A DNA stretch of 64,000 nt from Nibribacter ruber (GTDB taxonomy: Bacteria; Bacteroidota; Bacteroidia; Cytophagales; Hymenobacteraceae), in the NCBI RefSeq assembly GCF_009913235.1, contig NZ_CP047897.1:2851001-2915000 (forward strand), written 5' to 3'. The notes beneath the pieces are model-generated. The model did not search any database. It had not been told where the DNA came from and saw only the letters and a program-made list of their open reading frames with translations. A program made the translations under genes and the position numbers. Shown piece after piece: positions 2,425-62,255 of the stretch. Position 1 is the stretch's first letter; the number at the start of each line of letters is the position of its first letter.

Positions 2425-2467
2425 GGCGTTTTTGGGTTAATTTTTGGGGAAAGAGGCTGGAAACGCC
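2425..2467. repeat. 40-nt palindromic repeat, copy 1 (decayed)
   Basis: It begins directly after the SNF2 helicase stop codon. The arms GGCGTTTTTGGG and GGCTGGAAACGCC still pair at their ends but the centre has diverged. Low-similarity member of the family described under findings. Confidence 0.6.
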
Positions 2468-2532
2468 TTAGCCACTTATCAGAGTTGAAAAGATGATGGT
2501 GCGTTTATCCATATGTTGTGGCAAATTAAAAG

Positions 2533-3438
2533 ATGAAAAATTCACCTTATACACTCTTGCTTTTTCTATTTCTAGGGTGTGGTCTTCCCGCTAAAGAACC
2601 GACAGAAAAAGTATGGTTAGAGAGCATAGATGAGTACTGGAGGCTATCTGAGGCAGAAGAGTACAGCAAAGCCTTAACAATAGCAAAAGAACAGGTGGGG
2701 TACGCTGAAAAGGAATTCCCAGAAAGTGCCTTTTTGGCTGAGTCACATGAAAGGCTAGGGAATACATATAAGAGTATCCACGATTACCAAAAGGCAGCTC
2801 ATTATTTAAGGAAGTCCATTTTCTTGGGAAAGAGTAAGGGATTTGCTACGTTAAGTGCTTACCAGAGGCTATCTCTTGTCTATGTGGAAGCTGGAAAGAT
2901 TGACTCAGCCCTGACTACATTGCATAAGGCATTCTCGGAAAATAGAGAAGCCACTGGTATTGATAGCATATACTGGTATGAGGCAAAAGTAAACTTGGCT
3001 GAGATACTTATCATGAAACGGGAGTACCAACAAGCAGAAAAGCTATTAGAGGCAGTCCATGTCTACAGCACTTCCAAAGGTGACTCATCTCTAATGATGA
3101 CGGCAGCAACTGTAAAAGTGAGGCTTGATATTTACAATGCCCATTACGATTCGGCCTTGAAAGCTTGCGAGATTCTAAAAGGGTATTATAAAAGAAACAA
3201 TGAGATGGAGAGGTATGGTTCGACGGTTAACAATATAGGAGCCATCTATTTTGCCAAAAAGAACTATGGAAAAGCGATTGAGTATTTCCAAAAGGCGGCC
3301 GACCAAAAACTAACACGTTTCAAAGATTCTGCATACGTAGCGACTGAACTGATAAATATTTCAGTGGCCTATGAGAAGAATCATGATACGTTAAAGTCTC
3401 AATACTACTATAGATTGCATAAAAGAGTATCAAAATAA
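2533..3438 (+). CDS. TPR-repeat lipoprotein, function unknown
   Basis: A 301-residue protein with a lipoprotein signal peptide (lipobox LFLGC, Cys16), so probably anchored to the outer face of a membrane. The body is tandem tetratricopeptide-like helical pairs, for example around AHYLRKSIFLGKSKG and KAIEYFQKAADQK, which usually mediate protein-protein contacts. No histidine kinase or DNA-binding domain follows, unlike many Bacteroidota TPR sensors. The gene is visibly AT-richer than the helicase before it and it precedes a toxin-antitoxin pair, which suggests an acquired accessory segment. No partner can be named. Confidence 0.8.
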   Translation: MKNSPYTLLLFLFLGCGLPAKEPTEKVWLESIDEYWRLSEAEEYSKALTIAKEQVGYAEKEFPESAFLAESHERLGNTYKSIHDYQKAAHYLRKSIFLGKSKGFATLSAYQRLSLVYVEAGKIDSALTTLHKAFSENREATGIDSIYWYEAKVNLAEILIMKREYQQAEKLLEAVHVYSTSKGDSSLMMTAATVKVRLDIYNAHYDSALKACEILKGYYKRNNEMERYGSTVNNIGAIYFAKKNYGKAIEYFQKAADQKLTRFKDSAYVATELINISVAYEKNHDTLKSQYYYRLHKRVSK

Positions 3439-3572
3439 CTTGCAACAATATGGTATAAACATCAGCCATCGGAAGACAGCCTCGCCGTTTAAACTAACCT
3501 TTGTTAAAAACTGAAGAAAAACCTTATATGCTAATTCGACGCTAAACAGAATAAGTGTTTATATATTGCTTT

Positions 3573-3896
3573 ATGAATGTAGTGGAACAAAATATCGCGA
3601 ACATCTCAGCACTTTGCCAAATACATAAGGTGGACAGGTTATTTGTGTTTGGCTCCATTCTATCAGATAAATTCCGCGCCGAAAGTGACATAGACTTCTT
3701 AGTTAAGTTTGGGGACGTTGACCCTTACTATTATTTCGACAACTACATGGAATTGAAGGAGGCGTTGGAAAAGCTGTTGCAACGGCCTATTGACTTAGTC
3801 GAAGAACAGACCGTTAAGAATCCTATTCTGCAAAAGTCAATTGATAGCACCAAAAAACTAATCTATGGACGAGAGAATAGAAAAGTGGCTGCTTGA
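3573..3896 (+). CDS. mntA: MntA-type nucleotidyltransferase antitoxin
   Basis: A minimal nucleotidyltransferase of 107 residues. The family signature GS-x10-DxD is complete: Gly27-Ser28 and Asp39/Asp41 in FGSILSDKFRAESDID. In characterised HepT-MntA modules this enzyme transfers AMP groups to a tyrosine of the HEPN toxin and so silences it. The ATG at 3573 is preferred to the GTG at 3555 because the shorter form matches the usual family N-terminus. The gene overlaps the following HEPN gene by 32 bp, the normal arrangement for translational coupling. Base composition is AT-rich compared with housekeeping neighbours. Confidence 0.87.
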   Translation: MNVVEQNIANISALCQIHKVDRLFVFGSILSDKFRAESDIDFLVKFGDVDPYYYFDNYMELKEALEKLLQRPIDLVEEQTVKNPILQKSIDSTKKLIYGRENRKVAA

Positions 3897-4206
3897 CATA
3901 CTACAGGCTATAGAAGAGACCGAACAATATTTCACTATCTATCCTAAAACCTTTCATTCCTTTCAATCCAACATCCTCCTTAAGCGGGCAACAGAAAGAA
4001 ATCTGGAAATCATTGGTGAAGCCATGAACCGAATCCTGTTAAGAGAGCCTAATTTTCCGATTGAAAACGCGAGAAGAATAGTAGGTCTGCGAAATCACAT
4101 AATTCATGCGTACGATAATATCTCAGATGAGAACATTTGGGCTATTGTTATCAATCATTTACCAAAGCTAAAAGCAGAGATAGACAAATTGCTGAACAGG
4201 CTCTAG
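3865..4206 (+). CDS. hepT: HepT-like HEPN-domain RNase toxin (DUF86)
   Basis: A 113-residue, all-helical HEPN protein. The catalytic motif RX4HXY is intact as Arg76, His81 and Tyr83 in RNHIIHAYD, so an active ribonuclease toxin is expected. Tyr83 is the residue that MntA partners adenylylate in studied systems. The gene overlaps mntA by 32 bp in a different frame and ends 58 bp before a MepB-like gene. Such pairs act as plasmid/island stabilisers or phage-defence modules; which role applies here is not visible. Confidence 0.88.
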   Translation: MDERIEKWLLDILQAIEETEQYFTIYPKTFHSFQSNILLKRATERNLEIIGEAMNRILLREPNFPIENARRIVGLRNHIIHAYDNISDENIWAIVINHLPKLKAEIDKLLNRL

Positions 4207-4264
4207 CACCAAAAGCATTACACTTTCTATCCAACCACTAAAAGGAGCATCAATCCCAATTCCC

Positions 4265-4780
4265 GTGATTGAAACAGAAACCCTGAATAGCGAATTAGCA
4301 AATGCTATAAAAGAAGTATATGAGGCGTGTTCCCTTCAAATCACAGACCTTGTAGTGGAGCCAGAAAGCCAGGAATATAAAGCTTGTCGGTTTAGGGTGA
4401 ATGGAGCGGTGGTGCTGGGCAGAGAGGCGAAGGTAACGCCCAAGAAGGTGGGGCAGTTTGTGACCTTTTGGAAAAGGAATGAGAAAGGCATCATTGCGCC
4501 CTTCTTCGAGACTGACCCGTTTGACTACTACACGGTGAATGTCAGGACGGAGAATCGCTTCGGGCAGTTTGTGTTTCCCAAAGCAGCTCTTATCAAAAAA
4601 GGCATCGTCTCTACAGAGCAAAAAGAAGGGAAGAGGGCGTTTAGGGTGTATCCGCCGTGGGATGTGGTACACAGCAAACAAGCAGAGCAATCACAGAAAT
4701 GGCAGTTGGCGTTTTTTCTAGATTTGCACTCTGCGCCAGATGTAACCCGCGCGAAGGAGTTGTACACCAACCATCTGTAA
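4265..4780 (+). CDS. MepB-family protein
   Basis: A 171-residue cytoplasmic protein recognised as the MepB family from the blocks RFRVNGAVVLGREAKVTPKK, VGQFVTFWKR and FFLDL near the C-terminus. MepB is named from the Staphylococcus mepRAB locus, but its biochemical function is not established. The start is a GTG at 4265; no in-frame ATG lies nearby. It is followed by a repeat copy and a hairpin terminator, so it closes the transcription unit that may begin with mntA. GC content is higher than in hepT, so it may not belong to the same acquired segment. Confidence 0.75.
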   Translation: MIETETLNSELANAIKEVYEACSLQITDLVVEPESQEYKACRFRVNGAVVLGREAKVTPKKVGQFVTFWKRNEKGIIAPFFETDPFDYYTVNVRTENRFGQFVFPKAALIKKGIVSTEQKEGKRAFRVYPPWDVVHSKQAEQSQKWQLAFFLDLHSAPDVTRAKELYTNHL

Positions 4781-4785
4781 TTATT

Positions 4786-4825
4786 CCGTTTTTAGCTTAT
4801 TTCCAGAAAAACAGGCCAAAAACGG
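4786..4825. repeat. 40-nt palindromic repeat, copy 2
   Basis: Arms CCGTTTTTAGCTTATTT and AACAGGCCAAAAACGG lie 5 bp after the MepB-family stop codon and directly before a hairpin terminator. Confidence 0.85.
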
Positions 4826-4828
4826 AGG

Positions 4829-4860
4829 GCCCATCCACTAAAAATGGATGCGCTTTTTTA
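4829..4860 (+). terminator. Intrinsic terminator after MepB-family gene
   Basis: The stem GCCCATCCA / TGGATGCGC with a short A-rich loop is followed by a run of T. It sits directly after repeat copy 2. Confidence 0.75.
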
Positions 4861-4976
4861 TGCCAGGCAAAGGTTAATGTTTTGTTAAAGGTGAGGCGGG
4901 CGCTAGCTGTCCTGTCATTTTTCTGGTAACTAGAAAGTATTGGATCACTTACCTACTACCCAGCCAAAGACCAGCT

Positions 4977-5591
4977 ATGAAAAATTGTATCCTCACCGTC
5001 CTTTTTCTCTTCACCCTCATCGTTGCCCAAGCCAAGGAAATCACCGCGCACGTCATCTTTGAGAACCGAACCGGGAAACAACTGACGGCGGGAAAGTTTT
5101 ACATCCCAGAATTAGAAAAAACACTAGACATCACCTCAGCAGAGGGCTTTACGGTGACCTTGCCAGAGAAAGGGAAGTACAGCTTCGGGTTTAGGACAGA
5201 TGAGTTTGAGGCCTACACTATGTACCCAGCCAGAATCACTGAAAACAAAAACATCATCACGGTAAGGCTAGAGGAGAAGCCGGCAAAGCAGGATACCATC
5301 ACTATCAGCTTTGAGACGGAAATCACCCAGTTGGAAGACGCGCAATTGGAAAGCATGATCACCAAAGGGAAAGTAGAGTTTATCTTCCATAGCATTCAGC
5401 AACTCAACCTAGACTTTGGCACGTTCCAAGAGAAATACGGCATTGGGTATATCTCTAAGAACTGCATTATGGACCCGCTCACCCTCAAGGCCAGCACTGC
5501 GCATAACAAAAGGCTAGAAGCATTTCTAAACCAGAAGTACGGCGAAGGCTGGAAGAAAGACCTGCCGCTGCATCCCTTCGGGATAGAGTAG
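4977..5591 (+). CDS. Exported protein of unknown function
   Basis: A 204-residue protein with a clear Sec signal peptide (residues 1-19, ending in AQA) and no lipobox, so probably periplasmic. The N-terminal half looks like a beta-sandwich of the kind found in Bacteroidota surface proteins. The C-terminal part (FQEKYGIGYISKNC ... NKRLEAFLNQKYGEGWKKDLP) is compact and soluble. I do not recognise a named family. Repeat copy 3 begins at its stop codon and a terminator follows, so it is probably a single-gene unit. Confidence 0.75.
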   Translation: MKNCILTVLFLFTLIVAQAKEITAHVIFENRTGKQLTAGKFYIPELEKTLDITSAEGFTVTLPEKGKYSFGFRTDEFEAYTMYPARITENKNIITVRLEEKPAKQDTITISFETEITQLEDAQLESMITKGKVEFIFHSIQQLNLDFGTFQEKYGIGYISKNCIMDPLTLKASTAHNKRLEAFLNQKYGEGWKKDLPLHPFGIE

Positions 5592-5630
5592 CGTTTTTGG
5601 CCTGATTTCCAGAAAACAGCCTAAAAACGC
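5591..5630. repeat. 40-nt palindromic repeat, copy 3
   Basis: It begins on the last base of the preceding stop codon. Arms GCGTTTTTGGCCTGATTT and AAACAGCCTAAAAACGC; a terminator hairpin follows at once. Confidence 0.87.
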
Positions 5631-5631
5631 A

Positions 5632-5666
5632 GAAGCCCCGCCTATCAGAAATAGACGGAGCTTTTT
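5632..5666 (+). terminator. Intrinsic terminator after exported protein gene
   Basis: Imperfect stem AGCCCCGCCTAT / ATAGACGGAGCT closed by CAGAA and followed by TTTTT. It lies 20 bp before the convergent lipoprotein gene and may serve both strands. Confidence 0.6.
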
Positions 5667-5688
5667 GCGGGTTCACATTTACGTGTCG

Positions 5689-6372: not shown

Positions 6373-6724
6373 GGTATAGATACTTAAACGGATCATCAAA
6401 AAGGTTCTCAGCCAGACAAAAGGAACCAAAGAGACGTGCACTTCTCCTTACGTTTCTAGGGTCTGTTTGCAGGCAAGATGCGTGGGGGTGGGAAAAGGTT
6501 GCCTACTTCTACTAGATGCGCGAAACCATTTTTACCCCTACCGCGCCTCCAAAATTTTAAATGAAAGCACCTGGTTTCGCCCTGATTCCCAGAAAACAGC
6601 CCAAAAACCAGCCATCCTTCATTTGTTTGCCTGCCTGCCGGCTAATGCCATGCCAGAAGATTCTTCCCAAGATTCCCAACCTACTGCCGCCGTACTGGTT
6701 ATACAGAAATAAAGCCCAGACTCC
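6373..6724. other. Gene-free divergent spacer
   Basis: A 352-bp spacer between the divergent lipoprotein and SRPBCC genes. It holds a decayed palindromic repeat at 6571-6611 and presumably both promoters. I see no convincing TAnnTTTG element and no small gene. Confidence 0.5.
6571..6611. repeat. 40-nt palindromic repeat, copy 4 (diverged arm ends)
   Basis: CTGGTTTCGCCCTGATT pairs with CAGCCCAAAAACCAG around the conserved centre CCCAGAAAA. The outer CG pair has changed to CTGG/CCAG on both sides, a compensatory pattern. Confidence 0.7.
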
Positions 6725-7165: not shown

Positions 7166-7170
7166 GACTT

Positions 7171-7210
7171 GCGTTTTTAGTCAGTTTTGGGGAAAAGAGG
7201 CCAAAACCGG
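7171..7210. repeat. 40-nt palindromic repeat, copy 5 (decayed)
   Basis: GCGTTTTTAGTCAGTTTT and AAAGAGGCCAAAACCGG with a TGGGGA centre, 5 bp after the SRPBCC gene. Confidence 0.65.
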
Positions 7211-7241
7211 AATAAGACAAGTAAAAGGTAGCAATGCGCCA

Positions 7242-7265
7242 GAGACAGGGCGGTGCCGTTGTCTC
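7242..7265. repeat. Second palindromic repeat family, copy A
   Basis: An inverted repeat with arms GAGACAGGGC and GCCGTTGTCTC, followed by TAC. The same element with the same flanking CAATGCGC recurs at 51214-51237. Confidence 0.7.
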
Positions 7266-7321
7266 TACGTCTCCAACGCCAACTTTCTCATCCAAGCCTT
7301 CTCCCTCTGAGAGAAGGAACA

Positions 7322-7361
7322 GCGTTTTTTGCCTGTTTCCCAGAAATCAACTTGAAACCGG
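7322..7361. repeat. 40-nt palindromic repeat, copy 6 (right arm decayed)
   Basis: A good left arm GCGTTTTTTGCCTGTTT and centre CCCAGAAA, but the right arm reads CAACTTGAAACCGG. It lies 86 bp upstream of crtD. Confidence 0.6.
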
Positions 7362-7447
7362 AAGGCAGTTAACGTACCTTCACAAAACATTCTGTCGCAG
7401 TCAAGAGTTATGCCCACAAAAAGCACGATTCTGCGTAGATTGGCAAC

Positions 7448-9597: not shown

Positions 9598-9630
9598 AAC
9601 AATTGGTAACTTGGGAGTAAACTCAATGCA

Positions 9631-11175: not shown

Positions 11176-11198
11176 TTTAGGGCCAAGCTTCACAGGAT

Positions 11199-12602: not shown

Positions 12603-12641
12603 CCGTTTTTAGCCTGTTTCCTGGAAAATAGGCCAAAAACG
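12603..12641. repeat. 40-nt palindromic repeat, copy 7
   Basis: CCGTTTTTAGCCTGTTT and AAATAGGCCAAAAACG with centre CCTGG, which is the reverse orientation of the common centre. It lies between the second tetR and the convergent small gene. Confidence 0.86.
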
Positions 12642-14255: not shown

Positions 14256-14293
14256 CGTTTTTGGCCTCTTTCCCAGAAAACAAGCCAGAAACG
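14256..14293. repeat. 40-nt palindromic repeat, copy 8
   Basis: CGTTTTTGGCCTCTTT and AAACAAGCCAGAAACG around CCCAG. It lies 10 bp before an orphan terminator. Confidence 0.84.
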
Positions 14294-14636: not shown

Positions 14637-14675
14637 CCGTTTTTGGGCTGTTTTACCCAAAACAAGCCAAAAACG
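14637..14675. repeat. 40-nt palindromic repeat, copy 9
   Basis: CCGTTTTTGGGCTGTTTT and AAAACAAGCCAAAAACG, centre ACCC. It lies in the gene-free stretch before a small membrane protein gene. Confidence 0.84.
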
Positions 14676-16464: not shown

Positions 16465-16503
16465 CCGTTTTTGGCGTGTTTTCCAGGAAATAGGCCAAAA
16501 ACG
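16465..16503. repeat. 40-nt palindromic repeat, copy 10
   Basis: CCGTTTTTGGCGTGTTTT and AAATAGGCCAAAAACG around CCAGG. It lies in the divergent spacer between the nuclease and the glycosidase genes, 80 bp before the latter. Confidence 0.86.
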
Positions 16504-18147: not shown

Positions 18148-18187
18148 CCGTTTTTGGGCAGTTTTCCAGAAAATAAGCTAAAAACGG
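18148..18187. repeat. 40-nt palindromic repeat, copy 11
   Basis: CCGTTTTTGGGCAGTTTT and AAATAAGCTAAAAACGG around CCAG, 26 bp after the glycosidase stop; probably its terminator, as no other hairpin is present before fumC. Confidence 0.85.
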
Positions 18188-19667: not shown

Positions 19668-19707
19668 CCGTTTTTAGCCTCTTTTGGCCAAAACAGCCCA
19701 AAAAACG
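19668..19707. repeat. 40-nt palindromic repeat, copy 12
   Basis: CCGTTTTTAGCCTCTTTT and AAAACAGCCCAAAAAACG with centre GGCC, 1 bp after the fumC stop codon and directly before a terminator. Confidence 0.86.
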
Positions 19708-27236: not shown

Positions 27237-27275
27237 CCGTTTTTGGGCTGATTCCTGGAAAACAGCCCAAAAACG
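27237..27275. repeat. 40-nt palindromic repeat, copy 13
   Basis: CCGTTTTTGGGCTGATT and AAACAGCCCAAAAACG with centre CCTGG, 36 bp after the acyltransferase gene. Left and right arms carry a matching GGGCT/AGCCC change, so pairing is kept. Confidence 0.87.
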
Positions 27276-28363: not shown

Positions 28364-28401
28364 CGTTTTTGGCCTGTTTCCCAGAAAATACGCCAAAAAC
28401 G
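28364..28401. repeat. 40-nt palindromic repeat, copy 14
   Basis: CGTTTTTGGCCTGTTT and AAATACGCCAAAAACG around CCCAG, 5 bp after the DinB gene and 15 bp before a terminator. Confidence 0.88.
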
Positions 28402-29374: not shown

Positions 29375-29418
29375 TCCCGTTTTTAGCTTCTTTTCCAGAA
29401 AAGAAGCCAAAAACGGGA
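29375..29418. repeat. 40-nt palindromic repeat, copy 15 (extended arms)
   Basis: The arms reach 44 nt: TCCCGTTTTTAGCTTCTTTT and AAAAGAAGCCAAAAACGGGA. It lies between two minus-strand genes, 22 bp beyond the AsmA-like stop, and probably terminates that gene. Confidence 0.88.
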
Positions 29419-34936: not shown

Positions 34937-34978
34937 ATCGTTTTTGGCCTGTTCCCCAGAAAGTAGCCTAAAAACGAT
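34937..34978. repeat. 40-nt palindromic repeat, copy 16
   Basis: ATCGTTTTTGGCCTGTT and AGTAGCCTAAAAACGAT around CCCCAG. Between the gldJ terminator and the convergent comF gene. Confidence 0.86.
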
Positions 34979-36182: not shown

Positions 36183-36228
36183 ATTCCGTTTTTGGCGTAT
36201 TTCCCAGGAAACAGGCCAAAAACGGAAT
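36183..36228. repeat. 40-nt palindromic repeat, copy 17 (extended arms)
   Basis: ATTCCGTTTTTGGCGTATTT and AAACAGGCCAAAAACGGAAT around CCCAGG, 22 bp after the AhpD-like gene. The outer ATTCC/GGAAT pair extends the stem. Confidence 0.88.
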
Positions 36229-37516: not shown

Positions 37517-37553
37517 CCGTTTTTGGGCTATTTTTCTTAAAACTCATCAAAAC
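37517..37553. repeat. 40-nt palindromic repeat, copy 18 (decayed)
   Basis: The left half CCGTTTTTGGGCTATTTT is good; the right half is degraded to AAAACTCATCAAAACC. It ends 1 bp before the start codon of the DUF4175 gene. Confidence 0.55.
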
Positions 37554-37554
37554 C

Positions 37555-40500
37555 ATGCAGGCTGCCGGTTCCTTACATACTGTACTACAGCAGCTTCAGG
37601 CGTTTAAGCGTAAGTTCTACCTGAACCTGTTGTTCAAAGGCGCGCTTCTCACCGCAGGACTCCTGCTTTCCTTTTTCCTGCTCTTCACTTTACTAGAATA
37701 CTTCTTTTACTTCCAACCAGAAATCAGAGCCTTTCTGCTTTTCTCGTTTCTTGCCATTACCGTTTTTGCCGTAGGGCGCTGGCTCTGGACGCCGCTCATG
37801 GCCTTGGCCAATTTAAAGAAGCTGCTGTCAGATGAGCAGGCTGCCCAACAAGTAACCACTTACTTTCCCGAGATTCAGGACCGCTTGCTCAACCTGCTGC
37901 AATTGCGCCAACAGGCTGCAGAGAATGACTTGGTGGCCGCCAGCGTGGAACAGCGCTCCAGAGAATTAGAAGGTTATAAATTTCCGGAGCGGGTGCGCAT
38001 GGCGCAGAACAGGCCGTATTTAAAATATGTACTGTTGCCGTCTGCGCTGGTGTTGGTCTTGGCCTTCATTTACCCCAGCTTCTTTGTACAGGGCAGCCAA
38101 CGCATCATCAACTTCAAAACCCGGTACACGCCCAAAGCCCCATTTGAATTTAAGATCCTGAATAGAAATCTACAGGCTTTCCAGGGCGAGGATTTTCAGC
38201 TGAAAGTAGCCATCACCGGAGACAAGGTGCCAGAAGCGGTGGCCCTGGTGATGGATGGCAGAGAGATTCCGCTGCGCAAAGACAAAGACAACACGTATAG
38301 CTATGACTTCCAGCGGGTAGAGGAGACTGTGGATTTCCAACTCACCGGAGCCGGCTTTTACTCAGAGGAGAATCAACTGACGGTGGTGCCCAGGCCTTTG
38401 CTACGCGCTTTAAAAGCAGAATTACGCTACCCAGGCTACCTGCGCAAGCCCATGGAAGTTGTGGAAAACACCGGCGACCTGACCGTTCCCGAAGGCACGC
38501 AGGTTACCTGGCACCTGGAGGCAGAACACGCAGACTCCCTCTGGCTGCATTTCCAGAACCCCGCACAACGCGTGAAGGCCGAAGAACAGGAAGGTGCCTT
38601 TGTAGTGCGCAAAACGTTTCTGCAAAGCCAGCCCTACAGCATGCACCTGCGCAACAAGTACAGTGACAACAAAGAACGCATCAACTACCAGGTCAACGTC
38701 ATTCCAGACAGGACTCCCGAGATTACGCTGGAGCAGTTCAGGGATTCGGTGCTGTTCTCGTATTTGGTAGTGGGAGGAAACATTTCAGATGACTACGGTT
38801 TTAGCAGACTGGCCTTATATTATAGAGTGTCTAAACCCGGAAAGACCAGCGGCGGGTTCAAAGCCATTCCGGTTCCTTTCAACAAGACCATTCCCACGCA
38901 GGCGTACTTCCATCAGTTCAACTTAAAGCCGCTGGCCCTACATCCCGGTGACAAGGTGGAATATTTTGTACAGGTAACAGACAATGATGAGGTGCCTACG
39001 CCCAAGAGCGCGCGTTCTTCTACCTTCCTGTTTACCTATCCAGACCCGGCGCAGCTGCAGAAGTCCATTGACGCCACCTCGCAGAAAGTACAGTCGCAGT
39101 TAAAATCTTCATTGTCCAAGGCCGAGGAGCTGAAGAAGTCTCTGGAGCAGAACGAGGAGAAAACCAAACTGAAGCGTGAGCTGAGCTATCAAGACAAGAA
39201 GGCGTTGCAAGAATTGGCTGAGAAAAAGAAAGCCCTGCAGGAAGACTTGTCCTCTTTGCAAGAACTCAACAACCAGCTCAACCAACAGCAGGAGCGTTTT
39301 TCGCCTGAAAACGAGAAAATAGCCGAAAAACGAGACCAGCTCAAAAAGATGATGGACGAGCTATTGGATGAGGAGACCAAGAAGCTGTATGATGAGTTGG
39401 AAAAACTCCTGGAGCAGCGCCAGCCTAATCCGGCAGCCATTCAACCGCTTCTGGACCAGCTCAACCAAAAAGAAGAAAACCTGCAGAAAGAACTAGACCG
39501 CTTGTTAGAACTCTTCCAGCAGCTACAGGTAGAGCAGAAACTAGACCAGGCCACCCAGCAGTTAGAGCAACTAGCCAAAGAGCAGGAAGAGCTGTCGCAG
39601 AAATCACTGGACAAAAATCAATCAGAGAAAGCGCTGCAAGAAGAACAGAAGAAACTGCAGGAAGAATTCAAGGAGGCGCAAAAGGCGTTGGAGGAGGCCA
39701 AGAAACAAAACGAGAAACTGGAGAACCCAGAGTCCATTCCAGATTCAGAGAAACTAGAAGAGCAGATTGAGCAAGAGCAGGAAAACGCCCAAGAGTCTTT
39801 AGAGAAGAGCCAGAACAAGAAGGCCAGCCAGTCGCAGAAAGCCGCCGCTCAGAAAATGCAGCAGATGGCCCAGCAGATGAAAAGCGAGGAAATGTCTGGC
39901 GACATGGAACAGATGCAACAGAACCTGGACCACCTCAGAGACATCCTGGAGAATTTGGTGACGCTTTCCTTTGATCAGGAGAACCTCATGAAGTCCTTTA
40001 GAAGCGTGCACCAGAGCGACCCTCGGTTTATCAATCTGGCCCAGCAGCAACTCAAACTCTCAGATGATGCCAAGATCATTGAAGATAGTTTATTGTCCTT
40101 GGCCAAGCGAGTTTTCCAGATCCAGTCGTTTGTGACGCGGGAGGTAGGGGAGATGGAAGACAACATGGACAAGAGTTCAGAATCCATTAAAGACCGCAAC
40201 CTCTCCAAAACGGGGACACACCAGCAACTGGCCATGACGTCTATGAACAACCTGGCACTCATGCTCAGTGACGTGCAAAAGCAGATGCAACAAGCCATGA
40301 TGGCTGCACAGCAGGCGGGACCGGGTAAGAAGAAAGGCAAGAGCGGCAAGAATCAACCGGGGGCCTTGGGACAGATGCAACAGCAGCTCAACCAACAGAT
40401 ACAGCAATTGCAGCAGAGCGGCCAATCGGGGAAGGCCTTGTCAGAATCACTGGCCAAGTTGGCTGCCCAGCAGGAGCGGTTGCGCAACGCCTTGAAAGAC

Positions 40501-40560
40501 ATCACCCCGTCGTCCACTTCTCCGGGGGAAAGGAGCAGGGTCAGAATCTGTCTAATTTGA
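37555..40560 (+). CDS. DUF4175 membrane protein, C-terminus lost by a frameshift
   Basis: A large Bacteroidota DUF4175 protein. Two N-terminal transmembrane helices lie at about residues 23-45 and 55-75, a third near 155-175. Beta-sandwich modules follow to about residue 500, then a very long Gln/Glu/Lys-rich coiled coil (about 505-830) and a helical C-terminal region. The frame ends abnormally as GERSRVRICLI at 40560. The natural continuation, KEQGQNLSNLSKLMEQTEAD, is in the -1 frame and runs to 40865. The switch maps to a run of five G at 40524-40528; six G would restore one protein of about 1100 residues. Function unknown; it heads the gene cluster that includes ybeY and mnmG. Confidence 0.82.
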   Translation: MQAAGSLHTVLQQLQAFKRKFYLNLLFKGALLTAGLLLSFFLLFTLLEYFFYFQPEIRAFLLFSFLAITVFAVGRWLWTPLMALANLKKLLSDEQAAQQVTTYFPEIQDRLLNLLQLRQQAAENDLVAASVEQRSRELEGYKFPERVRMAQNRPYLKYVLLPSALVLVLAFIYPSFFVQGSQRIINFKTRYTPKAPFEFKILNRNLQAFQGEDFQLKVAITGDKVPEAVALVMDGREIPLRKDKDNTYSYDFQRVEETVDFQLTGAGFYSEENQLTVVPRPLLRALKAELRYPGYLRKPMEVVENTGDLTVPEGTQVTWHLEAEHADSLWLHFQNPAQRVKAEEQEGAFVVRKTFLQSQPYSMHLRNKYSDNKERINYQVNVIPDRTPEITLEQFRDSVLFSYLVVGGNISDDYGFSRLALYYRVSKPGKTSGGFKAIPVPFNKTIPTQAYFHQFNLKPLALHPGDKVEYFVQVTDNDEVPTPKSARSSTFLFTYPDPAQLQKSIDATSQKVQSQLKSSLSKAEELKKSLEQNEEKTKLKRELSYQDKKALQELAEKKKALQEDLSSLQELNNQLNQQQERFSPENEKIAEKRDQLKKMMDELLDEETKKLYDELEKLLEQRQPNPAAIQPLLDQLNQKEENLQKELDRLLELFQQLQVEQKLDQATQQLEQLAKEQEELSQKSLDKNQSEKALQEEQKKLQEEFKEAQKALEEAKKQNEKLENPESIPDSEKLEEQIEQEQENAQESLEKSQNKKASQSQKAAAQKMQQMAQQMKSEEMSGDMEQMQQNLDHLRDILENLVTLSFDQENLMKSFRSVHQSDPRFINLAQQQLKLSDDAKIIEDSLLSLAKRVFQIQSFVTREVGEMEDNMDKSSESIKDRNLSKTGTHQQLAMTSMNNLALMLSDVQKQMQQAMMAAQQAGPGKKKGKSGKNQPGALGQMQQQLNQQIQQLQQSGQSGKALSESLAKLAAQQERLRNALKDITPSSTSPGERSRVRICLI

Positions 40561-46211: not shown

Positions 46212-46744
46212 ATCTTCGGTGGGTAACCTGTGGGTAACTGGTGGAATAAAAAGGGCATAAGTCTGAAAACTCAACATCAAAGGAGAGTCCACCCCCAAAG
46301 TCAACCACCTTTTGTGAATGAGCGTTTACAAAACAGACAATCCCTGAGAGTTATTCACGTATGCATAACTTGAAAAGGTTTTCACCAGGTCATTTTGTGA
46401 ATTAGTGGAAAAGGCAGATAACTACTTGAACCAGAATAAAAACAAATTCACAACGTAAAGGAAAAGTGTGCATGAAACGGGCTGCTTGTACACAAACAGA
46501 AAACAGCCGTGTGTATACCCAAACTTATCCACTTGCTAACAGCCCTAATGATGAAAGAGATTCTTTTTAAGAAAAATTGTTTTATCATAAATGTCATGTG
46601 AACATTGTTGAGAACTGGAAAAAGAAAAAATTTGAAGAGGCCCACCGCCCCAAGAAATAAAAAGCAGAGCGTGTACAGTATCTGTTTTTGTGTAGTTTTA
46701 TAAAAAGTAAGCCAAAAACGGCATCATCAATCAAGAGCAATAAT
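46212..46744. other. Gene-free region with clustered DnaA-box-like sites; candidate oriC
   Basis: A 533-bp AT-rich spacer. Boxes within one or two mismatches of TTATNCACA: GGTGGGTAA (46218-46226) and TGTGGGTAA (46229-46237, minus-strand boxes, with a third related GGTGGAATA unit at 46240), TGTGAATGA (46313-46321), TTATTCACG (46351-46359), TGTGAATTA (46396-46404), AAATTCACA (46444-46452) and TTATCCACT (46525-46533). The first three are 11-bp tandem units, one helical turn apart. A very AT-rich stretch at 46556-46634 could be the unwinding element. It lies 2.5 kb from mnmG and 4.4 kb from the parS site. The call is inference; boxes are individually imperfect. Confidence 0.5.
46682..46721. repeat. 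40-nt palindromic repeat, copy 19 (left arm decayed)
   Basis: CTGTTTTTGTGTAGTTTT and AAGTAAGCCAAAAACGG. It ends 23 bp before the start codon of the small acidic protein gene, in its probable leader. Confidence 0.65.
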
Positions 46745-47344: not shown

Positions 47345-47384
47345 TCGTTTTTAGCCTCTTTTCCAGAAAACAGCCTAAAAACGA
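47345..47384. repeat. 40-nt palindromic repeat, copy 20
   Basis: TCGTTTTTAGCCTCTTTT and AAAACAGCCTAAAAACGA around CCAG, a compact, well-paired copy not adjacent to any gene end. Confidence 0.87.
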
Positions 47385-47718: not shown

Positions 47719-47756
47719 CGTTTTTCGCCCCTTTCCCAGAAAACAGACCAAAAACG
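47719..47756. repeat. 40-nt palindromic repeat, copy 21
   Basis: CGTTTTTCGCCCCTTT and AAACAGACCAAAAACG around CCCAG, 24 bp upstream of the terminator of the convergent transporter gene. Confidence 0.82.
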
Positions 47757-49479: not shown

Positions 49480-50976
49480 ATGAGCACTACTGAGAAGACA
49501 ACAGAGAACGCACAATTAAAAGATATCATCTCGCACGCCAAGGAATACGGCTTCGTGTTCCCGTCCAGCGAGATTTACGACGGTCTGCAGGCCGTATATG
49601 ATTACGGGCAAAACGGGGTTGAATTAAAAAACAACCTCAAGATGCTGTGGTGGAAGTGCATGACCCAACTGCACCAGAACGTGGTAGGCATTGACGCCGC
49701 TATTTTCATGCACCCGCTCACCTGGAAGGCATCGGGCCACATTGACTCGTTCAATGACCCCATGATTGACAACCTGGACTCTAAAAAACGCTACCGCGCC
49801 GACGTGCTCCTGGAAGACAAAGCCGCCGAGTACGAGAAAGCCGGTGATGTGGACAAAGCTCAGTCTCTGCTTAAGGAAATGGGCCGTCTGTTAGAGGCCG
49901 AAGACCTGAAAGGCGTACAGCAACTCATTATCTCAGAAAACATAAAGTGCCCTATTTCAGGGACTTCTAACTGGACAGACGTGCGTCAATTCAACCTGAT
50001 GTTCTCCACACAGGTAGGATCCGTGGCCGAGGACTCCAGCACCATCTACCTTCGCCCAGAAACCGCCCAAGGAATTTTCGTGAACTTCTTGAACGTGCAG
50101 AAATCGGGTCGTATGAAAGTGCCATTTGGCATCGCCCAGATTGGGAAAGCGTTTAGAAACGAGATTGTGGCCCGTCAGTTCATCTTCAGGATGCGCGAGT
50201 TTGAGCAGATGGAGATGCAGTTCTTCGTGCGCCCCGGCACCGAGATGGAATGGTACCAGCACTGGCGCACCATGCGCAAGAACTGGCACGAGGCTTTGGG
50301 CGTTCCTTCCAACAAACTGCGCTACCATGACCACGAAAAACTTGCCCATTACGCCAATGCTGCCGTGGACATTGAGTTTGAATTCCCGTTCGGTTTCAAA
50401 GAAGTAGAAGGCATCCACTCCCGTACCGACTTTGATCTGAAACAACACCAGGAACTAAGCCGCAAAAAGCTTCAGTACTTTGACAACGACCTGAACGAAG
50501 ACGGCAAACCCTATGGTAATTACGTGCCCTACGTGGTAGAAACGTCCGTAGGCGCTGACCGTCTGTTCCTGATGACGCTCTGCAATGCCTACCAAGAAGA
50601 GGAAATTACCGAAGGCGAAAACACCAAGACCCGTACTTTCCTGAAGTTCCACCCGGCCATTGCCCCAGTGAAAGCCGCCGTGTTCCCGCTGGTGAAGAAA
50701 GACGGACTACCTGAGAAAGCCATGGAGATCTTCAACGACCTGCGCTTTGACTTCAACATGATTTACGAAGAGCGCGACGCCATCGGTAAACGCTACACCC
50801 GCCAAGACCTAATCGGTACGCCGTTCTGTATTGCCGTAGACTACGAGACGCTAGAGAACAACACCGTCACGGTACGGGAGCGCGACAGCCGCGAGCAAAA
50901 ACGCATGCACATCTCTGAGCTTCGTCAGTACATTGGCGACGCCGTCAGCTTCAAGCGTATTTTTGAGAAATTATAA
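49480..50976 (+). CDS. glyS: Glycine-tRNA ligase
   Basis: A 498-residue class II synthetase of the homodimeric (alpha2) type, charging tRNA-Gly. The N-terminal part is LKDIISHAKEYGFVFPSSEIYDGLQ; motif 2 FRNEIVARQFIFRMREFEQMEM and the motif-3-region block (PYVVETSVGADRLFL) are present, and the anticodon-binding domain closes the protein (PEKAMEIFNDLRFDFN ... RYTRQDLIGTPFC). The start at 49480 is chosen because a -7 promoter element lies 5 bp before it; an ATG 66 bp upstream lies in front of that promoter. A repeat and a terminator follow. Confidence 0.96.
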   Translation: MSTTEKTTENAQLKDIISHAKEYGFVFPSSEIYDGLQAVYDYGQNGVELKNNLKMLWWKCMTQLHQNVVGIDAAIFMHPLTWKASGHIDSFNDPMIDNLDSKKRYRADVLLEDKAAEYEKAGDVDKAQSLLKEMGRLLEAEDLKGVQQLIISENIKCPISGTSNWTDVRQFNLMFSTQVGSVAEDSSTIYLRPETAQGIFVNFLNVQKSGRMKVPFGIAQIGKAFRNEIVARQFIFRMREFEQMEMQFFVRPGTEMEWYQHWRTMRKNWHEALGVPSNKLRYHDHEKLAHYANAAVDIEFEFPFGFKEVEGIHSRTDFDLKQHQELSRKKLQYFDNDLNEDGKPYGNYVPYVVETSVGADRLFLMTLCNAYQEEEITEGENTKTRTFLKFHPAIAPVKAAVFPLVKKDGLPEKAMEIFNDLRFDFNMIYEERDAIGKRYTRQDLIGTPFCIAVDYETLENNTVTVRERDSREQKRMHISELRQYIGDAVSFKRIFEKL

Positions 50977-50981
50977 TTGTG

Positions 50982-51019
50982 CGTTTTTAGGCAGTTTTCC
51001 AGAAAATAAGCCAAAAACG
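50982..51019. repeat. 40-nt palindromic repeat, copy 22
   Basis: CGTTTTTAGGCAGTTTT and AAATAAGCCAAAAACG around CCAG, 5 bp after the glyS stop and directly before its terminator. Confidence 0.86.
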
Positions 51020-51489: not shown

Positions 51490-51527
51490 CGTTTTTGGCC
51501 TGTTTCCCAGAAAACAGGCCAAAAACG
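51490..51527. repeat. 40-nt palindromic repeat, copy 23 (consensus-like)
   Basis: CGTTTTTGGCCTGTTT and AAACAGGCCAAAAACG flank CCCAGA; the arms are fully paired and match the family consensus. It ends 12 bp before the stop of the convergent epimerase gene. Confidence 0.9.
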
Positions 51528-52713: not shown

Positions 52714-52753
52714 CCGTTTTTAGGCTGTTTTCTGGAAAATAGGCAAAAAACGG
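52714..52753. repeat. 40-nt palindromic repeat, copy 24
   Basis: CCGTTTTTAGGCTGTTTT and AAAATAGGCAAAAAACGG with centre CTGG, the reverse orientation. It lies in the divergent spacer between the epimerase and exporter genes. Confidence 0.86.
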
Positions 52754-52801: not shown

Positions 52802-52818
52802 CGGGATTATTGAGGATT

Positions 52819-58807: not shown

Positions 58808-58831
58808 AATAGTACATTTGATTCTACTTGC

Positions 58832-58877
58832 CCTTCGTTTTTGGCCTGTTTTCTAGAAAACAGGCCAAAAACGAAGG
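58832..58877. repeat. 40-nt palindromic repeat, copy 25 (perfect 46 nt)
   Basis: A mathematically perfect 46-nt palindrome: CCTTCGTTTTTGGCCTG and its exact reverse complement CAGGCCAAAAACGAAGG. Its right end is shared with a second palindrome, GAAGGTTAACCTTC (58873-58886), which lies 4 bp before the lspA ATG. Confidence 0.93.
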
Positions 58878-58890
58878 TTAACCTTCTCTC

Positions 58891-59490: not shown

Positions 59491-59505
59491 AACCAGAATC
59501 CTGTA

Positions 59506-59565
59506 AAACGAAGAGGCGTTTTTGGCCTGTTTCCCGGGAAACAGGCCAAAAACGCCTCTTCGTTT
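59506..59565. repeat. 40-nt palindromic repeat, copy 26 (perfect 60 nt)
   Basis: The longest copy: AAACGAAGAGGCGTTTTTGG then CCTGTTTCCC, followed by the exact reverse complement of both. It lies between the convergent lspA and OmpW-like-sized barrel genes, 15 bp after one stop and 18 bp before the other, and is the only hairpin there. It is probably the terminator for both. Confidence 0.93.
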
Positions 59566-59583
59566 AAGTTACGTGACTGGAGT

Positions 59584-60192
59584 CTAGAAAGAGTAACCCA
59601 TGTTCAGGCCCACAGAAAAGATAGACGTGCCTTTGTTGTACAAATAACCAGTGGCGCGCCAGCCGAAGAACAGGCGGTTGTCACTGAAGAAGTCGTTCTC
59701 CAGGGCAATCTTTCCCCCGAAGTCCTTCTGTCGGTTATGGATGAACTGTTCGTCTGAGGTCTGACCCGGTGTGGTATTGTCACCTAGTGCTCCTTTGGCC
59801 AGGTCTACCTCTGAGCGTCTGCGTACGGCCGGGCCTGCACCAATCTTGATGGTAAAGCGGTCGTTCTCCAGCAAATCAAAGTACATGGAGGCATCAAACA
59901 TGACAAAGGCTTTTCTGGAGGTGAAGATTTTCTTGCCCTGGTCATACCTGGACGAGCTCAGATATTCACCAGACACCGTCATGTTTAATCTATCCGTCAG
60001 CTCACGGCTGTACTGGTTAGAGAACAAGGCCCCGCTATTGTCTCCCTCTACAATGTAGGCAAAAGCTACACCCGTCCGGAATGAATTTTTGTAGACGTGC
60101 TGCGCTGAGGCAGAAAAGGAGAGGGCGCCGCACAAAACGGCCACAAAGGCTGTTTTTAGGCATAGTGAGGTTAGGTAGTGGATGTGTTTCAT
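59584..60192 (-). CDS. Exported beta-barrel-like protein of unknown function
   Basis: A 202-residue protein with a signal peptide ending SASAQ. The mature part alternates aromatic and polar residues in strand-turn-strand order (NSFRTGVAFAYIVEGDNSG, LNMTVSGEYLSSSRYD, RLFFGWRATGYLYNKG) and ends in GYSF with a C-terminal aromatic, the usual pattern of a small eight-stranded outer-membrane barrel. No named family is recognised. Convergent with lspA; the shared palindrome between them probably ends both transcripts. Confidence 0.75.
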   Translation of the reverse strand: MKHIHYLTSLCLKTAFVAVLCGALSFSASAQHVYKNSFRTGVAFAYIVEGDNSGALFSNQYSRELTDRLNMTVSGEYLSSSRYDQGKKIFTSRKAFVMFDASMYFDLLENDRFTIKIGAGPAVRRRSEVDLAKGALGDNTTPGQTSDEQFIHNRQKDFGGKIALENDFFSDNRLFFGWRATGYLYNKGTSIFSVGLNMGYSF

Positions 60193-60383
60193 AAAAGTTT
60201 TTCTGTAGTAAGCTTATTAAGCGGGGGAGAATGGTCAACTTGGGGTATTGTGGCATACTTAGGTTTATCTAATTTAGTTGTATAGGAATCCCTGAATTTT
60301 TAAAGAATACCTACTGCTGACCTAAGAACCAGTAGCTTGCTGCCTCAATCAATGTTAAAATTTTTCCCTTCTGCCCCTCAACT

Positions 60384-62150
60384 TTGGTAAATCCTGTTCC
60401 TCTTCTAAGCGTTTCTGGCCTGCAGATAAACTTTTGCGGGGGCAAAGAGGCGCCTGTCAGGGTTGTAGAAGGCGTGCACCTCACGCTGCAGAAGGGCGAA
60501 GTACTGGCACTGGTAGGAGAGACCGGCTCTGGCAAGACGGCTACCTCCTTGGCCCTGTTACAATTGCTACCCAGTTCGCCGGCCCAAGTGGTGGCAGGCA
60601 AGGCCATCTTTCAGTCTAGGCAGCTTGGTGAGGTAGATTTACTACAGCTGCCTGCCAAAGAAATGCAGAAGATACGGGGGCGTGAGATTTCCATGGTGTT
60701 TCAAGAGCCTATGTCGGCGCTCAATCCGGTCATGCGCTGTGGAAAACAGGTTGCCGAGGCCCTGCAGATTCACTTTAACCTATCCAAAACAGCGGCCAGA
60801 CAGCAAGCCATAGAACTTTTAGCCTTGGTGCAGCTGCCCAATCCAGAACAGAAGTACCAGGCTTATCCACATGAATTGTCTGGCGGGCAGAAGCAGAGGG
60901 TCATGATTGCCATGGCCTTGGCGTGTAACCCGTCTGTCCTGATGGCAGATGAACCCACCACCGCACTGGATGTGACGGTGCAGTCAGCCATTCTGGACTT
61001 GTTGCGCACCCTCTGCCAGCAGCGCCAAATGGCTATGCTCTTCGTTACTCATGATTTGGGCGTGGTGGCTGAGATTGCTGATAGGGTGGCAGTGCTCTAC
61101 CAAGGGAAGGTAGTGGAAGAAGGAACCGTGAAGGAGGTTCTCCAGCACCCGCAGCACCCATACACCAAAGGATTGCTGGCCTGTAGACCTTCTTTGCACA
61201 CTAAAAGCGCCATCCTGCCCACCGTAGCCGATTTTCTTTTATCAGAGTCAGCAGCAGAGCAAGTACCAGAGATTCTAGGCAAGGATAAACAAGTCAAAGT
61301 GAATAGGGAAGAACTTCTCCAACCAGTGAGCCAAAGTCAGCCTCCGCTTATTCAAGTAAAAGACTTGCGGGTGCATTTGCCGCTGGGGCGCAATTTCTTT
61401 GGCAGGCCCAGAGACGTGGTAAAAGCCGTGGACGGTGTTTCCTTTGAGATTCACCCCGGAGAAACGGTGGCTTTGGTGGGAGAGTCGGGCTGTGGAAAAA
61501 CCACCTTGGGCAGGGCCTTGCTACGTCTGTTGGAGCCTACGGCGGGTACCATCTTACTCAACGGCGAGACGTGGAAAAACCTTTCAGCGGCAGAGTTGAG
61601 AAAACGTAGAAAAGAGTTCCAGATCATCTTTCAGGATCCCCTGGCGGCCCTGAATCCCTATACCAGGATAGGGGAAGCCATCATGGAACCTATGCAGGCA
61701 CATGGCGTGTTAAAGAGCGGCCGGGAACGGAAACAGCACGTAGAAGTATTGCTTCAGAAAGTGAACCTCCGGCCAGAACATTTTCATCGTTATCCACATC
61801 AATTGTCAGGCGGGCAACTACAGCGTATCAACATAGCCCGCGCCCTGGCCCTGCAGCCTTCTTGTATCGTCTGTGACGAAGCCGTCTCCTCTCTGGACGC
61901 ATCTGTGCAGGCCCAGGTCTTGAACCTGCTCAACCAGCTCAAGCAGGAATTTAACATGACGTATCTGTTCATTACCCATGACCTGGCCGTGGCTAGGTTT
62001 ATGGCCGACCGTATCTTTGTCATGCACCAGGGCAAGATAGTTGAGCAAGGCACGGCAGAGCAGATTTTTGAAAACCCACAGCATGGCTACACCAAAACGC
62101 TCCTGCAGTCTGTACCCGGTGCAAGTGTTCATGATTTTTTAACACCCTGA
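60384..62150 (+). CDS. Fused dipeptide-type ABC transporter ATPase (two ATPase domains)
   Basis: A 588-residue protein with two complete ABC ATPase domains, equivalent to DppD and DppF joined. The first has Walker A GETGSGKT (45-52) and signature LSGGQKQR; the second has GESGCGKT near 366 and LSGGQLQR. Both have the C-terminal oligopeptide-type extension (HPQHPYTKGLLACRP and NPQHGYTKTLLQSVPG). It would energise uptake of dipeptides, oligopeptides or nickel. No permease or binding protein gene is in the window. The start is a TTG at 60384; an ATG is not available near it. Confidence 0.9.
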   Translation: MVNPVPLLSVSGLQINFCGGKEAPVRVVEGVHLTLQKGEVLALVGETGSGKTATSLALLQLLPSSPAQVVAGKAIFQSRQLGEVDLLQLPAKEMQKIRGREISMVFQEPMSALNPVMRCGKQVAEALQIHFNLSKTAARQQAIELLALVQLPNPEQKYQAYPHELSGGQKQRVMIAMALACNPSVLMADEPTTALDVTVQSAILDLLRTLCQQRQMAMLFVTHDLGVVAEIADRVAVLYQGKVVEEGTVKEVLQHPQHPYTKGLLACRPSLHTKSAILPTVADFLLSESAAEQVPEILGKDKQVKVNREELLQPVSQSQPPLIQVKDLRVHLPLGRNFFGRPRDVVKAVDGVSFEIHPGETVALVGESGCGKTTLGRALLRLLEPTAGTILLNGETWKNLSAAELRKRRKEFQIIFQDPLAALNPYTRIGEAIMEPMQAHGVLKSGRERKQHVEVLLQKVNLRPEHFHRYPHQLSGGQLQRINIARALALQPSCIVCDEAVSSLDASVQAQVLNLLNQLKQEFNMTYLFITHDLAVARFMADRIFVMHQGKIVEQGTAEQIFENPQHGYTKTLLQSVPGASVHDFLTP

Positions 62151-62216
62151 GAGAAACGAAAAGCGCTGAAAGCAAGTATAGATGAATAGATATATTTGCA
62201 AAGCGTTCTCCCGCTT

Positions 62217-62255
62217 CCGTTTTTGGCCTCTTTTGCAGGAATTAAGCCAAAAACG
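62217..62255. repeat. 40-nt palindromic repeat, copy 27
   Basis: CCGTTTTTGGCCTCTTTT and AATTAAGCCAAAAACG around GCAGG, between the ABC ATPase and rnr genes. Confidence 0.83.

What the first reader, a model, noticed from the sequence alone, without database searches (positions are those of the whole stretch)
2425..62255. A 27-copy family of roughly 40-nt intergenic palindromes
Copies occur about every 2.4 kb, always outside recognised coding sequence. The consensus arms are CGTTTTTGGCCTGTTT and AAACAGGCCAAAAACG around CCAGA or its reverse. Many lie 1-36 bp after a stop codon, often immediately beside an ordinary hairpin terminator, so they are not simply the only terminator. Arms show paired substitutions (GGGCT/AGCCC at 27237, TCCCG/CGGGA at 29375, ATTCC/GGAAT at 36183), which implies selection or copying of the hairpin and not of the base sequence. 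Copies range from perfect to decayed. No transposase of the REP-associated type is in the window. The family could be a REP/MITE-like element spread by a distant transposase, an RNA-stabilising 3' hairpin, or a DNA-binding protein site. I do not know of a description of it.
Basis: seen in the sequence. Interest (0 to 1): 0.85.

Follow-up and report, generated by a model that had tools for sequence, protein, structure and literature searches.

The report
Conserved palindromic sites at gene ends
One genus of environmental bacteria carries over a thousand similar 36-letter DNA palindromes, mostly just after genes, that stay in the same places while the DNA around them changes, which points to binding sites of a still unidentified protein and not to wandering junk DNA.

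Summary
The family is real: 28 copies in the window, 191 in a 464-kb sample of this genome, 0 in its Markov control; about 1,800 per genome by extrapolation. It is confined to the genus that includes Rufibacter ruber: 15 of 15 same-genus genomes have 92-1,609 pattern hits, 21 genomes of sister genera 0-3. It does not behave like a drifting mobile repeat: against the nearest relative G007, 98 of 109 anchored copies lie at the same spot, with core identity 0.83 against 0.49/0.53 in the flanks, and no clean insertion was seen. Species have their own dialects at orthologous sites. In tandem copies G-U and A-C mismatches on the sense strand are equal in four species, so DNA rather than an RNA hairpin seems to be read; 43 of 266 copies, however, are tips of longer terminator-like hairpins. 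Copies mark transcription-unit ends: 56 of 72 convergent, 117 of 219 tandem, 28 of 76 divergent intergenic regions. Best reading: sites of an unknown two-fold symmetric DNA-binding protein acting as boundary or roadblock. The protein was not found. Location and number resemble REPs; the REP foot, RAYT link and turnover do not.

The parts
2428..2464 (.). palindrome copy, weak, 37-nt spacing variant
   Evidence: score 15.4; spacing
4788..4823 (.). palindrome copy
   Evidence: score 50.8; copy aligned in G007
5593..5628 (.). palindrome copy
   Evidence: score 58.7; copy aligned in G007
6573..6608 (.). palindrome copy
   Evidence: score 46.5; copy in the orthologous region of G007
7173..7208 (.). 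palindrome copy
   Evidence: score 40.8; one G007 copy for this and 7324
7324..7359 (.). palindrome copy
   Evidence: score 35.9; one G007 copy for this and 7173
12605..12640 (.). palindrome copy
   Evidence: score 58.7; not anchored
14257..14292 (.). palindrome copy
   Evidence: score 52.1; copy aligned in G007
14639..14674 (.). palindrome copy
   Evidence: score 49.9; G007 has an altered, longer palindrome here
16467..16502 (.). palindrome copy
   Evidence: score 55.2; copy aligned in G007
18150..18185 (.). palindrome copy
   Evidence: score 53.3; copy aligned in G007
19670..19705 (.). palindrome copy, followed by a terminator-like hairpin
   Evidence: score 38.9; copy aligned in G007
27239..27274 (.). 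palindrome copy
   Evidence: score 55.3; copy in G007, flanks diverged
28365..28400 (.). palindrome copy
   Evidence: score 56.6; copy aligned in G007
29379..29414 (.). palindrome copy with 5-bp pairing extension
   Evidence: score 52.7; extension
34940..34975 (.). palindrome copy
   Evidence: score 45.6; copy aligned in G007
36188..36223 (.). palindrome copy with 5-bp pairing extension
   Evidence: score 54.7; extension not kept in G007
37519..37554 (.). palindrome copy, weak right arm
   Evidence: score 29.4; copy aligned in G007
39296..39331 (.). copy-like sequence inside a called gene (37555-40560)
   Evidence: score 31.5; in gene
46684..46719 (.). palindrome copy, weak, right flank unusually conserved
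   Evidence: score 30.9
47347..47382 (.). palindrome copy
   Evidence: score 57.1; two copies in the G007 region
47720..47755 (.). palindrome copy
   Evidence: score 49.1; two copies in the G007 region
50983..51018 (.). palindrome copy 6 bp after a stop codon; a copy at 6-7 bp in 7 of 8 relatives
   Evidence: score 52.7
51491..51526 (.). palindrome copy, best score in the window
   Evidence: score 61.6; copy aligned in G007
52716..52751 (.). palindrome copy
   Evidence: score 56.2; copy aligned in G007
58837..58872 (.). palindrome copy between ileS and lspA; a copy in 8 of 8 relatives
   Evidence: score 59.4
59518..59553 (.). palindrome copy with 12-bp pairing extension
   Evidence: score 56.1; extension also in G007 with paired changes
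62219..62254 (.). palindrome copy; a copy in the orthologous region of 8 of 8 relatives
   Evidence: score 48.3

Best explanation
Each copy is a fixed, functional double-stranded DNA site: two inverted half-sites, (C)GTTTTTgGccTgTTT and its complement, at nearly rigid spacing (36 nt end to end), read by a two-fold symmetric DNA-binding protein that exists, or has this specificity, only in the genus that includes Rufibacter ruber. Shown: copy number, genus restriction, nearly invariant base positions, obligate pairing of half-sites, conservation in place with diverged flanks, species dialects at orthologous sites, no sense-strand RNA signature in tandem copies, preference for transcription-unit ends. 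Inferred: that a protein binds, and that the bound site keeps neighbouring transcription units apart (roadblock to read-through, insulation between converging polymerases, or a topological barrier). In a minority (43 of 266) the site is also the tip of a longer, terminator-type hairpin. The sites were probably seeded by some copying process in the genus ancestor (inference) and then kept by selection.
For: 0 control hits and a single score peak. Genus restriction. 98 of 109 anchored copies at the same place in G007, core 0.83 against flanks 0.49/0.53, positions 3-5, 14-15, 22 and 32-34 at 0.97-1.00. Orthologous intergenic regions: 21 of 21 with and 13 of 13 without a copy agree with G007; 48 of 59 region comparisons with a copy agree over seven other species. 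No clean insertion among the differences displayed. Half-sites paired in 351 of 356; spacing 36 in 255 of 272 pairs. Partner columns independent in G000; non-extended copies no better paired than arm-swapped controls in four species, G-U against A-C 117:110, 86:74, 90:90, 108:99. Position: convergent 56/72, tandem 117/219, divergent 28/76; between genes shared with G007 convergent 21/21 in each species.
Against: No binding protein was identified. All copies taken together pair better than swapped controls in G006 (z 6.3) and G009 (z 2.5), and non-extended copies of four pooled species do too (z 3.3, n 37); folding energies say the same for G006, G010 and the pooled set. Convergent copies in one sample had G-U 65 to A-C 42 (p 0.03). 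Spacing is looser in G010 (28 of 57 pairs at 36). In G009, whose matrix is weak, 46 of 208 hits lie deep in called genes. 28 of 76 divergent regions, which have no gene end, carry a copy. Among regions without a copy in G000, 8 of 36 in seven other species have one, so gain or loss does occur. REPs of other bacteria sit at similar places (PMC3733652, section 15).
Confidence: 0.5

Rival explanations
1. REP-type repeats spread by a RAYT (HuH tyrosine transposase), now immobile, preserved by inertia or mild selection.
For: Similar size, number and gene-end location (PMC3733652, section 15); three RAYT genes in G000, one with copies 40 bp before and 121 bp after it; 15 of 15 same-genus genomes have some NF047646 match.
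Against: No GTAG/GTGG foot (14 of 267 against 20 in a control stretch) and no target duplication; no match to the L011 RAYT in G007, whose NF047646 matches are weak (best 5e-9), though it has 1,409 pattern hits; 19 of 21 sister-genus genomes have RAYT matches and 0-3 palindromes; diverged flanks around a conserved core. The flank test at RAYT genes is imperfect because gene ends were misread at several loci.
Confidence: 0.13
2. RNA element: a 3' hairpin that ends or stabilises transcripts.
For: Gene-end preference; extended copies have near-perfect arms (14.1 of 16 pairs against 12.2, p 2e-8), T-tracts (36% against 8%) and outer stems that differ between species yet pair; excess pairing in some species.
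Against: No G-U/A-C asymmetry in tandem copies of four species and no excess pairing in non-extended copies of G000, G007, G006, G009; rigid spacing; no Rfam match in the window; copies in 28 of 76 divergent regions.
Confidence: 0.14
3. A DNA uptake or recombination signal kept by transformation drive, like Neisseriaceae DUS dialects.
For: Over a thousand copies, species dialects, stability in place; DUS show dialects and inverted pairs near terminators (PMC3630211, passages).
Against: Half-sites do not occur alone; site much longer than a DUS; rarely deep inside genes in G000 (12 of 269); gene-end preference at equal intergenic length. Competence genes were not examined.
Confidence: 0.1
4. 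Mutational upkeep: palindromes kept symmetric by template switching between arms, without function.
For: Copy-specific pairing outside the core in a minority.
Against: 186 of 191 cores are distinct, arms vary independently inside the core in G000 and G007, and specific bases are invariant, the opposite of arm correction.
Confidence: 0.05

Closest known systems
GTAG and CGTC REPs, REP-RAYT systems (PMC2817692, PMC3686654, PMC3733652)
   Same: High-copy 20-40 bp extragenic palindromes, near 3' ends, more between convergent and tandem genes; species-specific variants; RAYT genes in the same genome.
   Different: No GTAG or CGTC foot, symmetric on both strands, no consistent RAYT link, copies fixed at orthologous positions between species with diverged flanks, arms conserved as bases.
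DNA uptake sequences and their dialects (PMC3630211)
   Same: Thousands of short sites, species dialects, inverted pairs near terminators.
   Different: Here 36-38 bp, always paired at fixed spacing, seldom in genes in G000.
Intrinsic transcription terminators
   Same: Hairpin-capable, at gene ends; about a sixth of copies sit on a terminator-like stem.
   Different: Most copies lack a T-tract, tolerate mismatches and have conserved base sequence.
Chromosome-organising site systems such as MatP/matS or Noc (recalled, not searched)
   Same: Palindromic DNA sites read by one dedicated protein.
   Different: From recall those have tens of copies in defined chromosome regions; here over a thousand, even along the chromosome (4-14 per 20 kb) and tied to gene ends.

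Membership tests
REP (GTAG type) | high-copy extragenic palindrome | tested here: met
   1,651 pattern hits in the genome; 12 of 269 deep in genes
REP (GTAG type) | conserved GTAG/GTGG at the foot | tested here: not met
   14 of 267 within 8 nt, control stretch 20
REP (GTAG type) | flanks a cognate RAYT gene | tested here: inconclusive
   one RAYT of G000 flanked on both sides, others in the genus not regularly; gene ends misread at several loci; L011 RAYT has no match in G007
REP (CGTC type) | CGTC foot and stem of 8-9 bp | tested here: not met
   CGTC at foot in 9 of 267; arms of about 15 nt; definition from PMC3733652 section 6
Transposon / MITE | target-site duplication | tested here: not met
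   direct-repeat flanks within the range of swapped controls, 267 copies
Transposon / MITE | presence/absence as clean insertions | tested here: not met
   none among 7 of 8 G000-only and 2 of 2 G007-only cases looked at
Intrinsic terminator | stable stem followed by a T-tract | tested here: not met
   T-tract in 8% of 212 copies with extension 0-2 and 36% of 36 with 5 or more; met only by a minority
DNA uptake sequence | single short sites, also alone | tested here: not met
   351 of 356 half-sites lie in palindromes
DNA uptake sequence | promotes DNA uptake | not testable with these tools
   needs transformation assays
Protein-binding DNA site | conserved bases in symmetric half-sites at fixed spacing | tested here: met
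   (looser in G010)
Protein-binding DNA site | a protein that binds it | not testable with these tools
   no candidate found

The most novel reading that the evidence does not exclude
A genus-specific, chromosome-wide boundary system: most junctions of convergent transcription units, and about half of tandem ones, carry a 36-38-bp palindrome bound by an undiscovered protein that fences transcription units apart, a bacterial analogue of insulator or roadblock-terminator sites, whose recognition code has drifted into species dialects while the positions stayed fixed.
Probability: 0.38. Interest if true: 0.88.

Novelty: new variant of a known kind. Interest (0 to 1): 0.75.

Why it matters
Extragenic palindromes are often read as selfish repeats with borrowed roles. 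Here over a thousand copies arose in one genus, stay at orthologous positions while surrounding bases turn over, and change dialect by species. That makes the old question, whether such repeats at gene ends are junk or machinery, directly testable: the sites are defined to the base, sister genera are clear negatives, and the missing protein can be fished out with the palindrome itself. A boundary protein of this kind is not known to me in bacteria (recall, not a search result).

Tried and rejected
RAYT origin: PF01797 in this genome, NF047646 in this genome and 58 relatives, one RAYT protein in G000 and G007; RAYTs do not track the palindromes. Rfam at gathering level in the window: none. Viral contigs, exact-arm pattern: 0. 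PLSDB plasmids with the 36-mer: none. G037 (another family, 14 pattern hits against 2 in control) holds an unrelated long interspersed repeat. Uptake-sequence idea tested with half-sites. Compensation between half-site strengths, expected under simple selection on total affinity: not found. Stronger upstream half in tandem copies: mean difference 1.67, p 0.051, not used. Fewer ordinary terminators at convergent junctions of G000 and G007 (39 of 73) than in other Hymenobacteraceae (19 of 24, p 0.03), but other genomes of the genus have 29 of 38: not used. Finding the protein was not attempted beyond RAYT. Literature: searches listed no description of this family (open-access library; subscription journals mostly missing, bioRxiv not held as a library); two searches were for uptake sequences and roadblocks. 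The window-only test (a copy in the orthologous region of 25 of 26 anchored copies) is looser than the same-place count, which I rely on. Rows dropped: 6 of 115 copies without anchors and 3 of 98 same-place pairs without full flanks; copies too near stretch ends (269 to 266 or 267); L025 from samples that include L188/L189, which it overlaps. Gene calls come from my own dicodon script, not a published caller. L216 was fetched and not analysed.
Full report
WHAT IS THERE. The window lies at 2,851,001-2,915,000 of a 4.35-Mb single-contig genome, G000. The closest named ileS listed is that of Rufibacter ruber, 78% (that search may leave out the window's own or very near records). I therefore speak of the genus that includes R. 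ruber; the species of G000 is not known. The consensus is GTTTTTGGCCTGTTTTCCAGAAAACAGGCCAAAAAC, usually with C before and G after it. The window holds 28 copies. A position matrix finds 191 copies in 464 kb (window plus 20 evenly placed 20-kb stretches) and none in Markov-shuffled sequence, about 0.41 per kb or roughly 1,800 per genome by extrapolation. A pattern allowing three mismatches counts 1,651 in the whole genome.

GENUS RESTRICTION AND DIALECTS. The pattern counts 92-1,609 in 15 of 15 same-genus genomes, 0-3 in 21 genomes of five sister genera, and 0-14, mostly near its reversed control, in 22 genomes of other families of the order. Low counts inside the genus are at least partly due to dialect. 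With matrices refitted to each species, density is 0.37-0.75 per kb in the eight relatives examined (control 0 to 2 hits): G009, with 92 pattern hits in its whole genome, has 211 matrix hits in 420 kb against 4 in control. In G013 positions 12-13 read CA in 68% of half-sites; in G000, G007, G006 and G010 GT is commonest at 38-77%. Twenty loci of other genera show terminator-like or no inverted repeats of this size, and four Hymenobacteraceae loci of other genera have no copy.

CONSERVED IN PLACE. Against G007 (ileS 97% identical), 264 kb of G000 holds 115 copies. 109 could be anchored on both sides: 98 have a copy at the same aligned place, 3 a copy elsewhere in the region, 8 none. Over 95 pairs, gapless identity is 0.83 in the core, with 0.99-1.00 at positions 3-5 and 32-34, against 0.49 and 0.53 in the 40-nt flanks. 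Orthologous intergenic regions agree: 21 of 21 with a copy have one in G007 and 13 of 13 without have none. Of regions with a copy in G000, 11 of 15 in G006, 8 of 10 in G010, 10 of 12 in G013, 6 of 9 in G008, 4 of 4 in G004, 4 of 4 in G009 and 5 of 5 in R. ruber have one too; of regions without, 2 of 10, 2 of 8, 1 of 8, 2 of 6, 0 of 1, 0 of 1 and 1 of 2 have one. Between ileS and lspA all eight relatives carry a copy, 29-48 bp after ileS; after the stop codon at 50976 seven of eight carry one at 6-7 bp. Of the differences between G000 and G007, I looked at 7 of 8 G000-only and both G007-only cases (2 of 101 anchored): they are replaced, missing or unalignable regions, one altered longer palindrome and one substitution-type change, and no clean insertion of the unit.

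WHAT IS READ. The conserved positions are specific bases in two half-sites. Half-sites hardly occur alone: 351 of 356 lie in palindromes. Spacing is 36 nt in 255 of 272 half-site pairs of this genome and 30 of 31 in G013, but only 28 of 57 in G010. Inside the core, partner columns in G000 vary independently. Swapping right arms between copies does not lower pairing in most tests: G000 all copies z -1.0, non-extended -4.7; G007 -1.6 and -4.2; but G006 +6.3 and +0.6; G009 +2.5 and -0.5. A pooled set of four species gave +3.3 for non-extended copies (n 37), and folding energies of the core alone favour real arms in G006, G010 and the pooled set, not in G000, G007 and G013. If a sense-strand RNA hairpin were the selected form, G-U should exceed A-C mismatches: in tandem copies the counts are 117:110, 86:74, 90:90 and 108:99 in G000, G007, G006 and G009. 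In an earlier sample convergent copies gave 65:42 (p 0.03) and tandem 81:78. On balance I read this as recognition of double-stranded DNA, with pairing added in a subset.

THE EXTENDED MINORITY. In 43 of 266 copies the palindrome continues outward by 4 bp or more of copy-specific pairing; in the first sample 33 of 191 did, where swapped flanks predict about 5. These have near-perfect arms (14.1 of 16 pairs against 12.2, p 2e-8). T-tracts lie next to the stem more often (36% of 36 copies with 5 bp or more against 8% of 212 with 0-2). Extension length correlates between orthologs (r 0.67; 13 of 95 pairs extended in both, 11 in one), and outer stems can differ in sequence yet still pair. So about a sixth of sites double as tips of terminator-type hairpins.

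WHERE. Of intergenic regions of at least 60 bp in 644 kb of G000, a copy is present in 56 of 72 convergent, 117 of 219 tandem and 28 of 76 divergent ones; 12 of 269 copies lie deep in called genes. At equal length (120-250 bp) the rates are 18/21, 50/89 and 7/31 (convergent against divergent p 1e-5). G007 has 30 of 34, 63 of 112 and 15 of 40; G006 35 of 52, 82 of 153, 13 of 49; G009 31 of 49, 67 of 116, 18 of 51, but with 46 of 208 hits deep in genes, where its matrix is weakest. Between genes shared by G000 and G007, 21 of 21 convergent regions carry one in each species; with accessory genes the convergent rates are 3/7 and 0/1 in G000, 6/7 and 4/6 in G007. In tandem regions the median distance is 47 bp from the upstream stop and 111 bp to the downstream start. 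Copies lie before and after a detected terminator equally often (24:24, 5 overlapping, 96 with none found); terminators accompany copies at tandem ends (24 of 80 against 11 of 84 without a copy) but not at convergent ends (44 of 89 against 13 of 25). Density is even along the chromosome, 4-14 per 20 kb.

TRANSPOSASE. Three genes over the NF047646 (REP-associated tyrosine transposase) cut-off lie outside the window. One (L011/L120) has copies 40 bp before and 121 bp after it; RAYT loci of other species in the genus are not regularly flanked, with the caveat that my script misread gene ends at several of them. G007 has no match to that protein and two weak family matches. 19 of 21 sister-genus genomes have RAYT matches and 0-3 palindromes. 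No GTAG foot, CGTC foot or target duplication is present.

CONCLUSION. A dedicated two-fold symmetric DNA-binding protein that recognises these sites at transcription-unit ends best explains the base conservation, geometry, obligate pairing, stability in place, dialects and location. Whether the bound site terminates, insulates or relieves supercoiling is inference. The protein is missing from this analysis and is the decisive gap. The family resembles REPs in location and number but lacks their defining foot and turnover, so it is not filed as REP.

LITERATURE. PMC3733652: abstract, passages, sections 6 and 15. Passages only: PMC3686654, PMC2817692, PMC3630211. Other papers were seen as search listings only. 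No description of this family was listed in searches.

Noticed in passing
L009:2255-2290 (G000) and L117:2391-2426 (G013): G000 carries, downstream of a RAYT gene and upstream of a thioredoxin-like gene, a palindrome of G013 dialect nearly identical to the one at the matching G013 locus; dialect may mark gene transfer within the genus.
   Followed up: partly
L215:3063-3098 (G035, another genus): A solitary good copy just after a stop codon in a sister genus, perhaps brought in with its neighbour gene from this genus.
   Followed up: partly
L205-L214 (G037, another family): An interspersed repeat family of several hundred bp that chances on a similar 36-mer; unrelated to the palindromes.
   Followed up: partly
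window 46684-46719: This weak copy has an unusually conserved right flank in G007, just before the start of the next gene; it may have another role.
   Followed up: no
core positions 12 and 25 of non-extended copies: These partners pair less often than chance (z -4.4 in G000, -3.9 in G007), as if full symmetry were avoided; unexplained.
   Followed up: partly
window 39296-39331: A copy-like sequence inside a coding gene, conserved in G007; chance or an old in-frame insertion.
   Followed up: no
L011:1326-1361 and L011:2075-2110: A RAYT gene of G000 is bracketed by two copies, the first extended by a pairing stem and followed by a T-tract; with about half of tandem regions carrying a copy this may be coincidence.
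   Followed up: partly
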